From NCBI RefSeq assembly GCF_024055725.1, contig NZ_JAMXMX010000002.1, positions 372,001 to 436,000 on the forward strand: a stretch of 64,000 nt of DNA, written 5' to 3'. Both the position numbers and the translations under genes were made by a program. The stretch's first letter is position 1. Every line of letters begins with the position of its first letter. A model generated the notes under the pieces. That model saw only the letters and a program-made list of their open reading frames with translations. It was not told where the DNA came from and searched no databases. Source of the DNA: Actinoallomurus spadix (GTDB lineage: Bacteria > Actinomycetota > Actinomycetes > Streptosporangiales > Streptosporangiaceae). This document shows, one piece after another, positions 9,726-17,433 of this stretch.

Positions 9726-9741
9726 GATCTTAGGAGCGGTC

Positions 9742-12700
9742 GTGTCGACCCTCGGACCGAGGACTCCTCCGGCGGCACATGGCCCCACCGCGCTGCTGCC
9801 CCCGCACCGAGCGGGAGACGCCCCGACGTCCCGTGCGGACGGCGCCGGGACGATGCGGGGGTACCGCGCCGTACCCGACGTGTGGGTGGGCGCGGGAAGG
9901 GGCGTCGGCCTGGCCGCTGATCGGTTCGAGGAGGACGCGAGGGCGTTCCGCCGGGCGGTGGCCCGGCAGCCCTTCGGCCAGGACGATCTGGGGCGCGCCC
10001 TGTTCGAAGGCGACCCGGGCGCGGGCGCGCCCGGCTTCGTCGGCAGACGGGATGACCTGCTGAAGGACCTGACCGCGGCGGTGGATCTGCTGCGGAGGCT
10101 GGGATCGAGGTTGGAGCGGTCGGGCCTGCACTACGCCGAGGCGGAGGCGGCGATGGGCGCACCGACCGGCCTGAGCGGCCCGTCCTCGGTGCCGCGAGTG
10201 CCGCCCTGCCGATTGGACGGTTCCCTCGGCGAACCGCCCTCGACGGTGCCGCCACCCGGGATCGTTCTCCGGGCACAGTGGTTCTTCGAGTCGGTGGGGC
10301 TGGGGTGCCCATGGCCCGACGGCGACATCGGCGGCGTGGCGGACCTGCGGGACGCCGCCGCCGCCCTGGCGCATGCGGTCGAGTCCGCGCGGGAGCACGT
10401 CGCGTGGCATTCCGGCCGGGTGCCGGACAGCGGGTTCGGGGACGCGACCGAACGGTCGGAGTGGGCCGCACTCCTGGTGCACGGGAAGGGCGGGCTGCTC
10501 GAGGAGCTGAAACGGCGGTGCGAGGAGCTCGAGGCCTACTGCGAGTCCGGGATCGACGCGATCGCGAAGGCGCAGCGGCACTTCGAGGCGTCGGCGGCGT
10601 ACGTGCTGACGCTGATGCTCGCGGCGACGCTGCTCGGCCCGGCGGTGGAGGCGGCGGTCGCCCCGCTGATCCGGCTGGAAGGGATCGCGCTGCTGATCAC
10701 GCAGCGTATGATCCGCGAGGCCGTGCTGGGCGCGGCCTACTCCGGCGGCCTGGACGCGATCGATCAGCTCTTCCGCGGCACCGCCGATCCCTCGGAACTG
10801 GCCCGTGCGCTGTGGCAGGGAGCGGTCGCCGGCGGTCTCATGGGCGGTTCGCACGCGGCGCTCCCATCGGTGCTGCGCCGGGGACCGGCGCTCACCGCCC
10901 TGGCGGACGCGCTGGAGTCGCGTGGGGCGAAGGGCATCACCTCGCGGTTCCTGACCGGCGGGACGGTGGGCACCGTGGCGATGGCGACCGCCGACGCGGC
11001 GTCGGGGAACGGCTGGGACCTGGAACGCGCCGCCGAGTCCGGATTCGGCATGGCCTTTCTCGGCGCGGGCGCCGAAGCGGTGGGCGGTGCCCTCCGCGCG
11101 GGGCTGCGGCTGAAGCGGTCGACTGCGCTCTCGGGGTGGAGTTCGGACGCGTCCGGGACACCGGACGCCCCTGGGGCCGCACCCAAGATCGGCCCGGACT
11201 GGGTCCGCAGCGAGGAGAAGAGGCGAGCGGACAGGAGACGGGCGTGGATGCTGATGCCGATCGCAGGCCCGTTGATCTTCGTTGGGGCCACGCTCAAGTT
11301 CGCCGAGGACCGCAGGAGCCCGTTCTTCTCCCAGGAGCGGGTCGGCCAGGGCGGGGTGACGTTCCTGATCCACAAGCTGCGCACGATGCGGGACGGGCGG
11401 GGTACCGACGCCAGCCTGGGATCCGGTGACCCACGGGCGACGCCGGTCGGGAGGATCCTCCGCAAGCTCACCATCGACGAGTTGCCGCAGCTGCTGAACA
11501 TCCTCAAGGGAGAGATGGCGCTGGTCGGGCCGCGACCCTTGCTGGAGGGCGACATTCGGCGGATGGCCGAGGTCCTCGATCCTGATCTCTTCAACGAGTG
11601 GTACGAGGCGTACAAGGCCTCGCGACCCGGGCTGCTCGGGATGTTCGGCAACGAGAGCATCACCCTGACTCCGCAGAGCGAGGAGTACCTGCGCCGACGG
11701 GCCGAACTGGACATCGAGTACTTCCGTAACGCGAGTCCGGAGCTGGACAGGAAGATCATCAAGGCGACGCTGCAGATCGGTCTGTCCTTCCTCGATCGCC
11801 GCGCCTCGCCGGCGCACGAGGCCGCGAACCCCCCGGCGGACGTCCCGCCGCACGCGCCGGACGGTGCCGGCGATCCGGGCACCGCGCCTCCCGGCCACGT
11901 GCCGAGCGGGGCCGGTGATCCGGGCACCGCGCCTCCCGGCCACGCGGCGCTACCCGTCGACGTCCATCGATGGTGGACCGCGTTGACGCCCCGGGAACGG
12001 ACCGCCTGGGAGACCGCGCACCCGGCCTTGCTCGGGAGCCTGGACGGCATCCCGGCCGAGGTGAGGGACCGCGCGAACCGCGTGCTCCTCCAGGAGCAGA
12101 AGACCGAGTTGACCGAGGAATGGCAGCGGATCGAGGCGCCGTCGGCGCGCGACGAGACCTCCCGCCGACGTCTGTCCGAGATCGACGACGCACTGAACGG
12201 CCTGCGCGTCATCGAGAAGCGGCTGGCGCTGCCGGGCGGAGCCGAGCACCCGCGCGCGTACCTGCTGTCCGTCAGCACCGAGGGAACCGGGCGGGCGATC
12301 ATCGCCTTCGGTGACCCGGACACCGCCGCGCACGTCGCCACGTACGTTCCGGGGGCGAGGTCGCGGCTCGGCACCATCGAGACCCGGATGCGGACGGGGG
12401 AGGCCGTCGCGGTGGCGGCACGGCAGGCCGGTGAGCCGTCGACGGCTGTGATCACCTGGTTGGGTTACGAGGCGCCGCAGACGATCCCGAGGGCGGTCGA
12501 CCGCCGGTTCGCGCATGCGGCCACGCCGGATCTTCACCGGTTCCAGGACGGCCTGCGCGTCACGCATCAGGGACCCCGCTCGCACAACACGGTGATCGGG
12601 CACAGCTACGGGAGCGTGGTCGTCGGATACGCGGCGCGGGACGGTCTGCTCAACGCGGACGACGTCGTCTTCGAAGGCAGCCCGGGTGTCGGGGTCCCGC

Positions 12701-13008
12701 ACGCCGGCCGTCTGCGCCTGGCCGGTGTACGGCAGGGCGAGGTGGGCTACCACGTGCACGCGACCATCGCCCGATGGGACTTCATCCGGCTGCTGGCGGC
12801 CCATGGTCGGCGGCCGACCGCCCCGGCCTTCGGGGCGCGGACGTTCGTGTCGCATCCGGGCACCCGGGGACCGTGGTACTTCGGCGGTCTCAGCCGGGAG
12901 GCTCACGGCGAGTACTGGCTGCCGGGGAATCCGGCGCTGACCCATCTCGGCGAAATCGTCACGGGCCGGAGCGGCGCTCCCGCGGAACGGACGGGCGGGT
13001 CAGGCTGA
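9742..13008 (+). CDS. WXG100/CpnT-like module fused to phosphoglycosyl transferase and DUF1023 hydrolase
   Basis: 1088 residues from GTG (AGGAG 5 nt upstream; an earlier TTG lacks a ribosome site). Order: residues about 45-135, ESX/WXG-like helices (VWVGAGRGVGLAADRFEEDA); about 170-500, the CpnT-type N-terminal domain of polymorphic effectors (CPWPDGDIGGVADLRDAAAA) with hydrophobic helices at about 290-330; about 500-685, a complete bacterial sugar transferase with a membrane entry helix, FSQERVGQGG, HKLRTM, the catalytic Asp-Glu pair (579/580) in DELPQLLNILKGEM and VGPRPL; a linker repeating GAGDPGTAPPGH; about 740-1070, DUF1023 alpha/beta hydrolase with nucleophile Ser955 in GHSYGS. The transferase should move a sugar-1-phosphate to a polyprenol phosphate, and the hydrolase may cut an ester. 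Function of the fusion is unknown. Confidence 0.85.
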   Translation: MSTLGPRTPPAAHGPTALLPPHRAGDAPTSRADGAGTMRGYRAVPDVWVGAGRGVGLAADRFEEDARAFRRAVARQPFGQDDLGRALFEGDPGAGAPGFVGRRDDLLKDLTAAVDLLRRLGSRLERSGLHYAEAEAAMGAPTGLSGPSSVPRVPPCRLDGSLGEPPSTVPPPGIVLRAQWFFESVGLGCPWPDGDIGGVADLRDAAAALAHAVESAREHVAWHSGRVPDSGFGDATERSEWAALLVHGKGGLLEELKRRCEELEAYCESGIDAIAKAQRHFEASAAYVLTLMLAATLLGPAVEAAVAPLIRLEGIALLITQRMIREAVLGAAYSGGLDAIDQLFRGTADPSELARALWQGAVAGGLMGGSHAALPSVLRRGPALTALADALESRGAKGITSRFLTGGTVGTVAMATADAASGNGWDLERAAESGFGMAFLGAGAEAVGGALRAGLRLKRSTALSGWSSDASGTPDAPGAAPKIGPDWVRSEEKRRADRRRAWMLMPIAGPLIFVGATLKFAEDRRSPFFSQERVGQGGVTFLIHKLRTMRDGRGTDASLGSGDPRATPVGRILRKLTIDELPQLLNILKGEMALVGPRPLLEGDIRRMAEVLDPDLFNEWYEAYKASRPGLLGMFGNESITLTPQSEEYLRRRAELDIEYFRNASPELDRKIIKATLQIGLSFLDRRASPAHEAANPPADVPPHAPDGAGDPGTAPPGHVPSGAGDPGTAPPGHAALPVDVHRWWTALTPRERTAWETAHPALLGSLDGIPAEVRDRANRVLLQEQKTELTEEWQRIEAPSARDETSRRRLSEIDDALNGLRVIEKRLALPGGAEHPRAYLLSVSTEGTGRAIIAFGDPDTAAHVATYVPGARSRLGTIETRMRTGEAVAVAARQAGEPSTAVITWLGYEAPQTIPRAVDRRFAHAATPDLHRFQDGLRVTHQGPRSHNTVIGHSYGSVVVGYAARDGLLNADDVVFEGSPGVGVPHAGRLRLAGVRQGEVGYHVHATIARWDFIRLLAAHGRRPTAPAFGARTFVSHPGTRGPWYFGGLSREAHGEYWLPGNPALTHLGEIVTGRSGAPAERTGGSG

Positions 13009-16089: not shown

Positions 16090-16401
16090 ATGGACGAACA
16101 ATCGCTCGGCGTAGAGTCCGACGGTCTGCGGCTGGGGGCGCGAGACGTCCGAGAGGCCGCCGTGACACTGGCCGGAAAGCTCGACGCGCATCACCCGCCC
16201 TGCAATCACCACTGGGGCTGGAGCGCAAATGAGGCGCTGAATGCCTTGACCTCGGCGTGGGCGACCCATCTCAACGGTCACGTCGAGGAGGGCCACGACG
16301 CCGTCCACCGGCTCCATCGGACACGTACGACCTACTCGACCGGCGAGGACGTGGGTCGGGCAGCGGCGCAGCGAGCCATGCCGCGCGTCGAGGACGTCTG
16401 A
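16090..16401 (+). CDS. EspC-like (DUF2580) ESX-associated small protein
   Basis: 103 residues from ATG with GAGG 5 nt upstream; the frame is open 75 nt further but without a ribosome site. The layout fits the EspC family: an N-terminal LGVESDGLRLGARDVREAA, a long helix and a C-terminal helix with the YSTGEDVGRAA signature, about 100 residues, no signal peptide. A Trp-Gly-Trp-Ser (WGWSANEAL) sits in the turn, like the WXG turn of ESX substrates. It lies 9 bp before the NlpC/P60 gene, and the two are probably a type VII-type substrate pair. No ESX ATPase or membrane genes are in the window. Confidence 0.65.
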   Translation: MDEQSLGVESDGLRLGARDVREAAVTLAGKLDAHHPPCNHHWGWSANEALNALTSAWATHLNGHVEEGHDAVHRLHRTRTTYSTGEDVGRAAAQRAMPRVEDV

Positions 16402-16410
16402 GGCTCCGGG

Positions 16411-17433
16411 ATGAGCTCGCAGATCACTTACCAGGAGCTGCTGACCGCGCAGCCGGAGATGTGGAAGGACAGCGCGGAGGGCTGGAACAAGTGGTCGTCC
16501 GCCGTGCACGACCACGCCCACAGCCTCAAAGCGATCACCACGGCGGTCGCGAAGCGCTGGGACGGACTGGCGTCCACCGAGGCCCACTCGTTCGTCACCG
16601 CGGCCCACATCCGGGCGGCGGACTCCGCGGCCGCCCTCCGCAAGGTCGAGACCTGCCTGAAGGAGGCCTACGCGACCTTCGCGCAGGCGCACAACAAGCT
16701 GATCTCACTCCGCGGCCAGGCGGAGAACCTCGGATTCGTGGTCGACTCCACAGGGACGATCACCGACCCCGACCACATCCTCGCCAAGGCCAACGGGCAG
16801 CATCTGAACAACCTGACCCAGCAGAAGAATCAACTGCAGAAGGACATCCACCAGGTGGTGGAGGACGCCAGAACGGCGGACGAGAAGGTCGCCTCCACCC
16901 TGAACGGCCTGATGCCGCCCCGCACCACGACCCTTGCCGGCGCGCCCAACGGCGGGTCGCCCAACGGCGGATCGCCGAGCACGTCGTACGCTCCGCCCGC
17001 GCCGGTCTCCTACGGGCACTCACCTGGCGACATCCCGTTCCCGCCCACCGCCCTGAGCAACGCGCCCAACCCCAGGGCCAAGACGATCATGGAGTACGCG
17101 CGGAGCAAGCTCGGCGATCCGTACGTCTGGGGTGCCACGGGCCCGGACAAGTTCGACTGCTCGGGATTGACCTCACAGGCCTACCACGCCGCCGGGATCA
17201 ACATCCCCCGGACCTCCGAGGCTCAGTGGGCAGCCGGTCCCCGGATCCCGAACGGGTCGGAGAAGCCGGGCGACCTCGTCTTCTTCCACGGTGCCTCGCA
17301 CGTGGGCATCGTGATCGATCCGGCGAAGGGCCTGATGATCGCCGCGCCGCACACCGGAGCGCACGTCAGAATCGAGAGCTATAAGAACTACCCGGGCGGA
17401 TACATGGGGTTCACCCGCCCGGGCGTGTCCTGA
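16411..17433 (+). CDS. NlpC/P60 (C40) cell-wall peptidase with helical N-terminal domain
   Basis: 340 residues, no signal peptide. Residues 1-170 are helical with several Trp (MWKDSAEGWNKWSSAV; AKRWDGLAS), resembling ESX-type helical hairpins, and a coiled segment (QQKNQLQKDIHQVVEDA). A Pro/Ser/Gly linker with the repeat NGGSP follows, then the C40 domain (about 230-340) with catalytic Cys250 (FDCSGLTSQAYHAAGI), His297 (SHVGIVID) and a polar third residue near His314. It should cleave peptidoglycan stem peptides (D-Glu to diamino acid). Lack of a Sec signal plus the EspC-like neighbour suggests type VII-like export. Confidence 0.88.
   Translation: MSSQITYQELLTAQPEMWKDSAEGWNKWSSAVHDHAHSLKAITTAVAKRWDGLASTEAHSFVTAAHIRAADSAAALRKVETCLKEAYATFAQAHNKLISLRGQAENLGFVVDSTGTITDPDHILAKANGQHLNNLTQQKNQLQKDIHQVVEDARTADEKVASTLNGLMPPRTTTLAGAPNGGSPNGGSPSTSYAPPAPVSYGHSPGDIPFPPTALSNAPNPRAKTIMEYARSKLGDPYVWGATGPDKFDCSGLTSQAYHAAGINIPRTSEAQWAAGPRIPNGSEKPGDLVFFHGASHVGIVIDPAKGLMIAAPHTGAHVRIESYKNYPGGYMGFTRPGVS

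What the first reader, a model, noticed from the sequence alone, without database searches (positions are those of the whole stretch)
9742..13008. Fusion of type VII-type secretion module, phosphoglycosyl transferase and DUF1023 hydrolase
One 1088-codon gene contains a WXG100/CpnT-type N-terminal region (residues about 45-500), an apparently complete bacterial sugar transferase (Asp-Glu 579/580, DELPQLLNILKGEM) and an intact DUF1023 hydrolase (nucleophile Ser955). Sugar transferases of this class usually start lipid-linked glycan synthesis on the inner face of the membrane; DUF1023 proteins are often encoded beside ESX-like genes. I do not know of a described protein with this order. The CpnT-type N terminus normally carries a toxin at its C terminus, so the transferase-hydrolase tail may be a polymorphic effector or an exported enzyme of the envelope. 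This is the best candidate for a new system in the window.
Basis: partly seen in the sequence, partly recalled or inferred. Interest (0 to 1): 0.8.

Follow-up and report, generated by a model that had tools for sequence, protein, structure and literature searches.

The report
Secretion-tagged glycan-priming enzyme with hydrolase tail
One bacterial gene joins an export-type front part, shared with likely antibacterial toxins, to a membrane enzyme of the kind that starts lipid-linked sugar chains and to a hydrolase; the arrangement is real and rare, and what it does is not yet tested.

Summary
One 1088-codon ORF (9742-13008 +) carries a complete monotopic phosphoglycosyl transferase (PF02397; Asp579-Glu580) and a complete Abhydrolase_8/DUF1023 domain (Ser955, Asp1013, His1055) behind a ~450-residue front module. 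A second species has the same order (59% identity); four more have front module plus transferase only. So this is no assembly error. The module matches WXG100_2 (22 of 23 members scanned), has a near-invariant YxxxD/E (26 of 27), and recurs before unrelated tails, among them GH-E nuclease followed by a SuFu gene, ADP-ribosyltransferase, deamidase, kinases, amidase and SAICAR synthetase. One paralogue lies inside an ESX locus of the same genome, and that ESX type is the only one common to the six fusion-bearing genomes. This supports a type VII export module. Unlike the nuclease-type relatives, four of the six transferase fusions lack any close same-strand neighbour, so the toxin-immunity organisation is not met; module and transferase seem inherited as a unit. 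Best guess: an ESX-exported enzyme effector drawing on the polyprenyl-phosphate carrier of another cell. Main rival: an envelope enzyme of the producer. Export, activity and toxicity are untested.

The parts
9732..9736 (+). AGGAG, possible ribosome-binding site for GTG 9742
   Evidence: sequence printed
9742..13008 (+). whole gene, 1088 codons from GTG plus stop; alternative start ATG at 9853
9874..10161 (+). N1 (residues about 45-140): conserved first region of the front module, ending in the YxxxE motif
   Evidence: alignment of 27 modules, window included
10132..10146 (+). Tyr131-x-x-x-Glu135: Tyr in 27 of 27, Asp/Glu at +4 in 26 of 27 modules
   Evidence: type VII motif YxxxD named in the cut abstract of PMC5311947 in the listing, the /E form recalled
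10252..10659 (+). N2 (residues 171-306): WXG100_2, PF25547
   Evidence: below cut-off; homologues
10669..11091 (+). N3 (residues about 310-450): glycine-rich region conserved among the modules; a role in translocation is inference
   Evidence: conserved columns G314-A438
11218..11778 (+). monotopic phosphoglycosyl transferase domain (Bac_transf, residues 493-679)
11476..11481 (+). catalytic dyad Asp579-Glu580
   Evidence: invariant in 7 of 7 fusion-type and 10 of 10 ordinary transferases aligned
11839..11961 (+). proline/glycine-rich repeated linker (residues 700-740)
   Evidence: translation; codon composition
11962..13005 (+). hydrolase unit (residues 741-1088), Abhydrolase_8 core at 848-993
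12604..12606 (+). predicted nucleophile Ser955
   Evidence: invariant in 7 hydrolases aligned
12778..12780 (+). Asp1013, predicted acid of the triad
   Evidence: invariant in 7; role inferred
12904..12906 (+). His1055, predicted base of the triad
   Evidence: invariant in 7; role inferred

Best explanation
The gene encodes a substrate of one particular ESX (type VII) system. The first ~450 residues are a trafficking module; the cargo is a monotopic phosphoglycosyl transferase with, in two species, an added hydrolase. My best guess is that the protein leaves the cell through the ESX system and that the transferase works on the inner leaflet of a recipient cell. There it would move a sugar phosphate from a nucleotide sugar onto undecaprenyl (polyprenyl) phosphate; without the later enzymes the product is a dead end that ties up the carrier needed for wall synthesis. 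The hydrolase would cut a second, unknown substrate. Shown by sequence: domain integrity, shared module, motif, co-occurrence with the ESX type. Inferred: export, delivery, target and effect.
For: Front module shared with known toxin classes: GH-E nuclease in two paralogues, each followed by a SUFU gene, ADP-ribosyltransferase (23.9 bits, just over its cut-off of 23.4), glutamine deamidase, kinases. YxxxD/E in 26 of 27. A clade-A paralogue lies between eccD and eccB, with three other genes, in the genome's C22 ESX cluster. EccB tree of 18: the C22 type (100/100) is the only one found in all six fusion genomes; G010, G012 and G016 have no other. In 100 family genomes EccB is in 45, and the 4 with the strong module are among them (one-sided Fisher p 0.038). 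Sixteen standard transferase positions are invariant in 7 of 7. Precedents: an LXG alarmone synthetase toxic in the cytosol (PMC12691689, passages); TelC, a type VII toxin that attacks lipid II (PMC12419801, passages). Undecaprenyl phosphate is in limited supply (PMC12802240, passages).
Against: No immunity-like partner: of 15 clade-A genes, 3 have a same-strand gene within 50 bp (PAP2; a 216-aa protein without Pfam match; a DDE transposase), against 7 of 11 in the nuclease-type branch (p 0.043), with a background of 141 of 473. The clade-A rate was not tested against background and is not far from it. Module and transferase seem inherited together rather than shuffled. A transferase of this kind needs cytosolic nucleotide sugar, so simple secretion would leave it idle. 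The transferases of G003, G010, G012 and G016 have lost parts of GPRP around the invariant Arg. The module had no meaningful match among solved structures, and no structure model could be made.
Confidence: 0.4

Rival explanations
1. Envelope enzyme of the producer: the front module docks the transferase at the producer's own membrane or ESX translocon, where it starts a lipid-linked glycan for the cell's own use; no antagonism.
For: No close same-strand neighbour in 4 of 6 fusions; module and transferase occur together in six genomes of four genera and seem co-inherited; between window and G002 the transferase (65%) is better conserved than the module (55%); PAP2 lipid phosphatase gene 9 bp downstream in G002.
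Against: No conserved neighbours among the six loci apart from generic ABC-ATPase-like matches (28-29% identity) between two of them; the same module carries unrelated enzymes and toxin-class tails.
Confidence: 0.33
2. Effector against eukaryotic neighbours (amoebae, fungi), which would need no immunity gene; the transferase would act on dolichyl phosphate.
For: Missing immunity-type genes in this branch while two nuclease-type relatives have SUFU genes.
Against: No tool result points to a eukaryotic target; monotopic transferases are listed as prokaryotic (Table 1 of PMC10942596, passage).
Confidence: 0.12
3. Standard polymorphic toxin with an unlinked or overlooked immunity gene.
For: Shared module with toxin-immunity pairs; a 216-aa gene 20 bp downstream in G012 and PAP2 in G002 could be immunity genes.
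Against: Four of six transferase fusions have no same-strand gene within 50 bp; neighbours are not conserved. Genes were called by my own script, so a short gene could be missed.
Confidence: 0.1
4. Decaying fusion without function, or an assembly error.
For: Fast-changing, motif-poor transferases in G003, G010, G012 and G016.
Against: Same order in two species; 16 standard transferase positions invariant in 7 of 7 fusion-type and 10 of 10 ordinary transferases aligned; hydrolase triad intact.
Confidence: 0.05

Closest known systems
WXG/LXG-type type VII polymorphic toxins (Zhang et al. 2012, PMC3482391; 12 of 42 matching passages seen)
   Same: Trafficking front module, exchangeable enzymatic tails, YxxxD/E, one paralogue in an ESX locus; GH-E with SuFu immunity is listed there
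   Different: Transferase and hydrolase tail; no immunity-type partner. The passages seen name a PF04488 glycosyltransferase and a peptide kinase, not PF02397
Monotopic phosphoglycosyl transferases (PglC small type, WbaP large type; PMC10942596, passages)
   Same: PF02397; sequence match to solved chains 8e37 and 8g1n over residues 489-678 (8G1N is called PglC in that paper); Asp-Glu dyad
   Different: No PF13727 match; own clade at 100/100 with D523, P527, F635 and R653; front module instead of a membrane bundle
Exported alarmone synthetase AaEAS (PMC12691689, passages)
   Same: House-keeping-type enzyme behind a type VII domain that uses cytosolic substrates
   Different: LXG module, targeting factor and likely immunity gene present; different chemistry
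TelC (PMC12419801, passages)
   Same: Type VII effector acting on the undecaprenyl carrier cycle
   Different: Cleaves lipid II outside the cell; here the enzyme would build a lipid-linked sugar in the cytosol
Abhydrolase_8/DUF1023 proteins
   Same: Residues 741-1088 match them, triad intact; best match outside the fusions is a 394-aa G001 protein (50%)
   Different: Attached to a transferase and this front module

Membership tests
Type VII polymorphic toxin | trafficking module shared with different C-terminal domains | tested here: met
   27 modules; nine kinds of tail recognised by Pfam, one further APH (L082) just below cut-off; ten tails unmatched or only weakly matched
Type VII polymorphic toxin | YxxxD/E motif after a WXG-like region | tested here: met
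   26 of 27; the helical fold itself was not modelled
Type VII polymorphic toxin | adjacent immunity gene | tested here: not met
   next gene downstream is on the opposite strand, DUF2530
Type VII polymorphic toxin | ESX machinery in the same genome | tested here: met
   two clusters; EccB in 7 of 7 genomes searched; it is also in 45 of 100 family genomes
Type VII polymorphic toxin | ESX-dependent secretion and toxicity | not testable with these tools
   needs experiment
CpnT | EsxE/EsxF pair upstream, NAD-hydrolysing toxin tail, immunity gene downstream (all recalled) | tested here: not met
   upstream gene NmrA-like, tail without such a match, downstream gene on the other strand
Monotopic phosphoglycosyl transferase | PF02397 above cut-off | tested here: met
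   129.5 against 27 bits
Monotopic phosphoglycosyl transferase | Asp-Glu catalytic dyad and the other standard invariant positions | tested here: met
   16 positions invariant in 7 of 7
Monotopic phosphoglycosyl transferase | re-entrant membrane helix | tested here: inconclusive
   alignment to solved chains spans it; no structure model
Abhydrolase_8 (DUF1023) | family score and Ser-Asp-His triad | tested here: met
   110.5 against 20.5 bits; S955, D1013, H1055 invariant in the 7 aligned

The most novel reading that the evidence does not exclude
A branch of type VII effectors, seeded by a phosphoglycosyl transferase cargo, that delivers ordinary house-keeping-type enzymes (carrier-lipid glycosyl transferase, purine enzyme, amidase, kinase, glycosyltransferase) to drain or misroute a neighbour's metabolites, and that dispenses with dedicated immunity genes because the producer tolerates the reaction.
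Probability: 0.3. Interest if true: 0.85.

Novelty: new variant of a known kind. Interest (0 to 1): 0.55.

Why it matters
If exported, this would be a type VII cargo that makes, rather than breaks, a lipid-linked intermediate, and would hit the carrier that wall synthesis depends on. The whole branch would show a delivery module moving house-keeping-type enzymes without immunity genes. If it works in its own cell instead, it links an ESX-type module to the start of an envelope glycan. One gene removal and one enzyme assay would tell these apart.

Tried and rejected
Assembly error: rejected by the G002 ortholog. A PAP2 gene as constant partner: seen only in G002 among the six loci. A conserved neighbour as immunity gene: none among six loci, apart from generic ABC-ATPase-like matches between two. 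Two further transferase hits in the family search, G104 and G067: neither has the front module near it; G104 is an ordinary large type with PF13727, G067 reads as an ordinary small type by eye. Profile of the front module against solved structures: three matches, E 0.11 to 5.1, none meaningful. Three unknown clade-A tails against solved structures: one match at E 0.13, otherwise none. NCBIfam on clade-A tails of unknown kind: only a weak M6-protease match for the L048 tail, 19.7 against 110.8 bits. One genome-contig scan with the whole protein gave one locus, a transferase match in Glycomyces. Plasmids: 1012 records match some part, none covers 80%; the 20 listed match the hydrolase part. Literature search on undecaprenyl phosphate sequestration with toxins and type VI secretion: one unrelated paper. 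First two EccB trees used wrong frames for some rows or lost three rows and were replaced. My notebook entry calls both G104 and G067 large-type enzymes; one search corrects it for G067.

Limits: of 29 front-module matches among the 50 rows, 24 were fetched and analysed, plus the 3 outside the genus; five were left out (G007:C16, G006:C380, G004:C33:180888, G004:C58, G001:C1:3690894). The genome searches score only part of their first-look candidates (12 per genome at most, 17), so counts are lower bounds. Genes were called by my own GC-based script. L050 and L051 are nearly identical contig-end copies (15 becomes 14 if merged; p 0.049). L083 was counted with the nuclease-type branch and L012 with neither. 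The 23-member alignment leaves out L009, L012, L050 and L051.
Full report
The sequence. The ORF at 9742-13008 is open and 1088 codons long. GTG 9742 has an AGGAG 5 bases upstream; ATG 9853 lies where most aligned homologues begin, and codons 1-37 show no coding GC pattern, so the true start is undecided. Pfam gives Bac_transf at residues 493-679 (E 1.3e-37), Abhydrolase_8 at 848-993 (E 9.7e-32) and a sub-threshold WXG100_2 at 171-306. The best solved relative by sequence is a diacetylbacillosaminyl-1-phosphate transferase (8e37, E 1.9e-19, residues 489-678). The NCBIfam matches are polyprenyl glycosylphosphotransferase-type models, all below their own cut-offs.

Domain integrity. In seven transferases of this type, positions R533, G535, F541, K545, R547, M549, D563, T567, G570, D579, E580, Q583, M592, R598, P629 and G630 are invariant, and so they are in the ten ordinary transferases aligned. 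D523, P527, F635 and R653 are invariant in the seven and absent at those columns from the ten (some of the ten have gaps at 523 and 527). G484, W487 and S490 are also invariant in the seven, but most ordinary rows were cut short there, so they are no test. The seven form one clade at 100/100. Against a uniform reading, G003, G010, G012 and G016 have lost parts of GPRP around the invariant Arg. The hydrolase keeps S955, D1013 and H1055 in the 7 aligned.

Distribution. The full order occurs in the window genome and in G002 (59% identity over 31-1085). G007, G010, G012 and G016 have front module and transferase without hydrolase, and no convincing hydrolase remnant was found at those loci. G003 has the transferase without the module. 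In 100 family genomes, 7 had a transferase match at E up to 1e-20; two of these, G104 and G067, are ordinary enzymes without the module. The front module at E up to 1e-40 was in 4 of 100 family genomes and in 1 of 98 class genomes, the window's own (candidates scored only in part). Outside the genus this strong form was seen only with the transferase. The hydrolase unit also occurs in other open frames of about 340-640 residues.

The front module. Twenty-seven modules, window included, were aligned: Tyr131 in 27 of 27, Asp or Glu at +4 in 26 of 27, Asn in one. WXG100_2 matches 22 of 23 scanned members at E up to 0.01. The motif YxxxD is named for type VII substrates in the cut abstract of PMC5311947 (listing); its /E form is recalled. 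Tails by Pfam: SAICAR synthetase, AbiEii plus GT4-conflict glycosyltransferase, APH kinase, amidase, PI3/PI4-kinase, glutamine deamidase, GH-E nuclease twice, a sub-threshold APH, ADP-ribosyltransferase just over its cut-off. SAICAR synthetase also passes an NCBIfam equivalog cut-off (308.1 against 251 bits). Ten tails match nothing or only weakly.

ESX link. The genome has two EccB genes, each in an ESX cluster. In the cluster on contig C22, EccC, EccD and EccB pass their cut-offs, mycosin falls below its own (255.3 against 278.75 bits) and the 643-aa gene where EccE would be expected matched nothing. A 2460-residue paralogue with a 39-41% identical front module lies between eccD and eccB, with three other genes. 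EccB was found in 7 of 7 related genomes, the window's included. In the tree of 18 EccB proteins the C22 type holds members of all seven genomes and is the only type in G010, G012 and G016. As a control, EccB is in 45 of 100 family genomes; the four with the strong module are all among them (one-sided p 0.038). This is modest evidence. The clade-A gene inside the ESX locus was seen in the window genome only.

Two branches. The module tree has a branch A of 15 (transferase, SAICAR synthetase, amidase, kinase, glycosyltransferase and unknown tails; 100/100) and a branch of 10 with nuclease, deamidase, kinase and unknown tails (98/97). The six transferase fusions group at 86/82. Module and transferase trees agree in pairing G002 with G007 and G012 with G016; the module tree puts the window with G010, G012 and G016 (94/87), which the transferase tree leaves open. 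In the second branch plus L083, 7 of 11 have a same-strand gene within 50 bp downstream (overlaps included); for the two GH-E proteins it is SUFU, and a YbaB-like gene precedes the L080 one. In branch A it is 3 of 15: PAP2, a 216-aa protein without Pfam match, and a DDE transposase. Background is 141 of 473; A against the other p 0.043. So the second branch looks like toxin-immunity pairs and branch A does not stand out from background.

Mechanism. Shown: an apparently intact enzyme pair behind a module shared with toxin-class proteins and tied to one ESX type. Inferred: export, delivery and carrier trapping. Carrier trapping is chemically reasonable because undecaprenyl phosphate is limiting and shared with peptidoglycan (PMC12802240, passages, whose reference list holds Jorgenson and Young 2016 on its sequestration). 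Type VII precedents are AaEAS (PMC12691689, passages) and TelC (PMC12419801, passages). The missing immunity gene and the joint occurrence of module and transferase are the strongest points for the rival, an enzyme of the producer's own envelope.

Print record. No paper in the held library has both 'phosphoglycosyl transferase' and 'polymorphic toxin'. The one paper with 'polymorphic toxin', 'sugar transferase' and 'type VII secretion' (PMC3482391) uses 'sugar transferase' for another fold in the passage seen. 'DUF1023' with 'type VII secretion' gave none, 'GT4-conflict' none. A wider search gave 280 papers, of which the 15 listed hold no 'phosphoglycosyl transferase'. Subscription papers are mostly outside this library, so this is weak evidence of novelty.

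Noticed in passing
window 16090-17433 +: A 103-aa protein without Pfam match followed 9 bp on by a 340-aa NlpC/P60 protein with a weak WXG100 match at its N terminus; may be an exported wall hydrolase pair.
   Followed up: partly
L046:11653-14826: A complete SAICAR synthetase (PurC) behind the same type VII-like front module in G002, followed by a DDE transposase gene.
   Followed up: partly
L049:6705-11222: AbiEii nucleotidyltransferase and GT4-conflict glycosyltransferase domains in one protein behind the front module.
   Followed up: no
L043:12641-13348: PAP2 lipid phosphatase gene starting 9 bp after the full-length ortholog in G002; possible partner or protector.
   Followed up: partly
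L080:9050-9613 and L081:5088-5645: SUFU genes, of the kind listed as immunity genes, directly after GH-E nuclease paralogues; YbaB-like gene upstream of the L080 one.
   Followed up: yes
L009:7605-14987: 2460-residue paralogue between eccD and eccB whose tail of about 1900 residues matches no Pfam or NCBIfam family.
   Followed up: partly
L053:7785-8801: Transferase of the fusion type without front module in G003, with odd composition and a changed GPRP region; perhaps a relic.
   Followed up: partly
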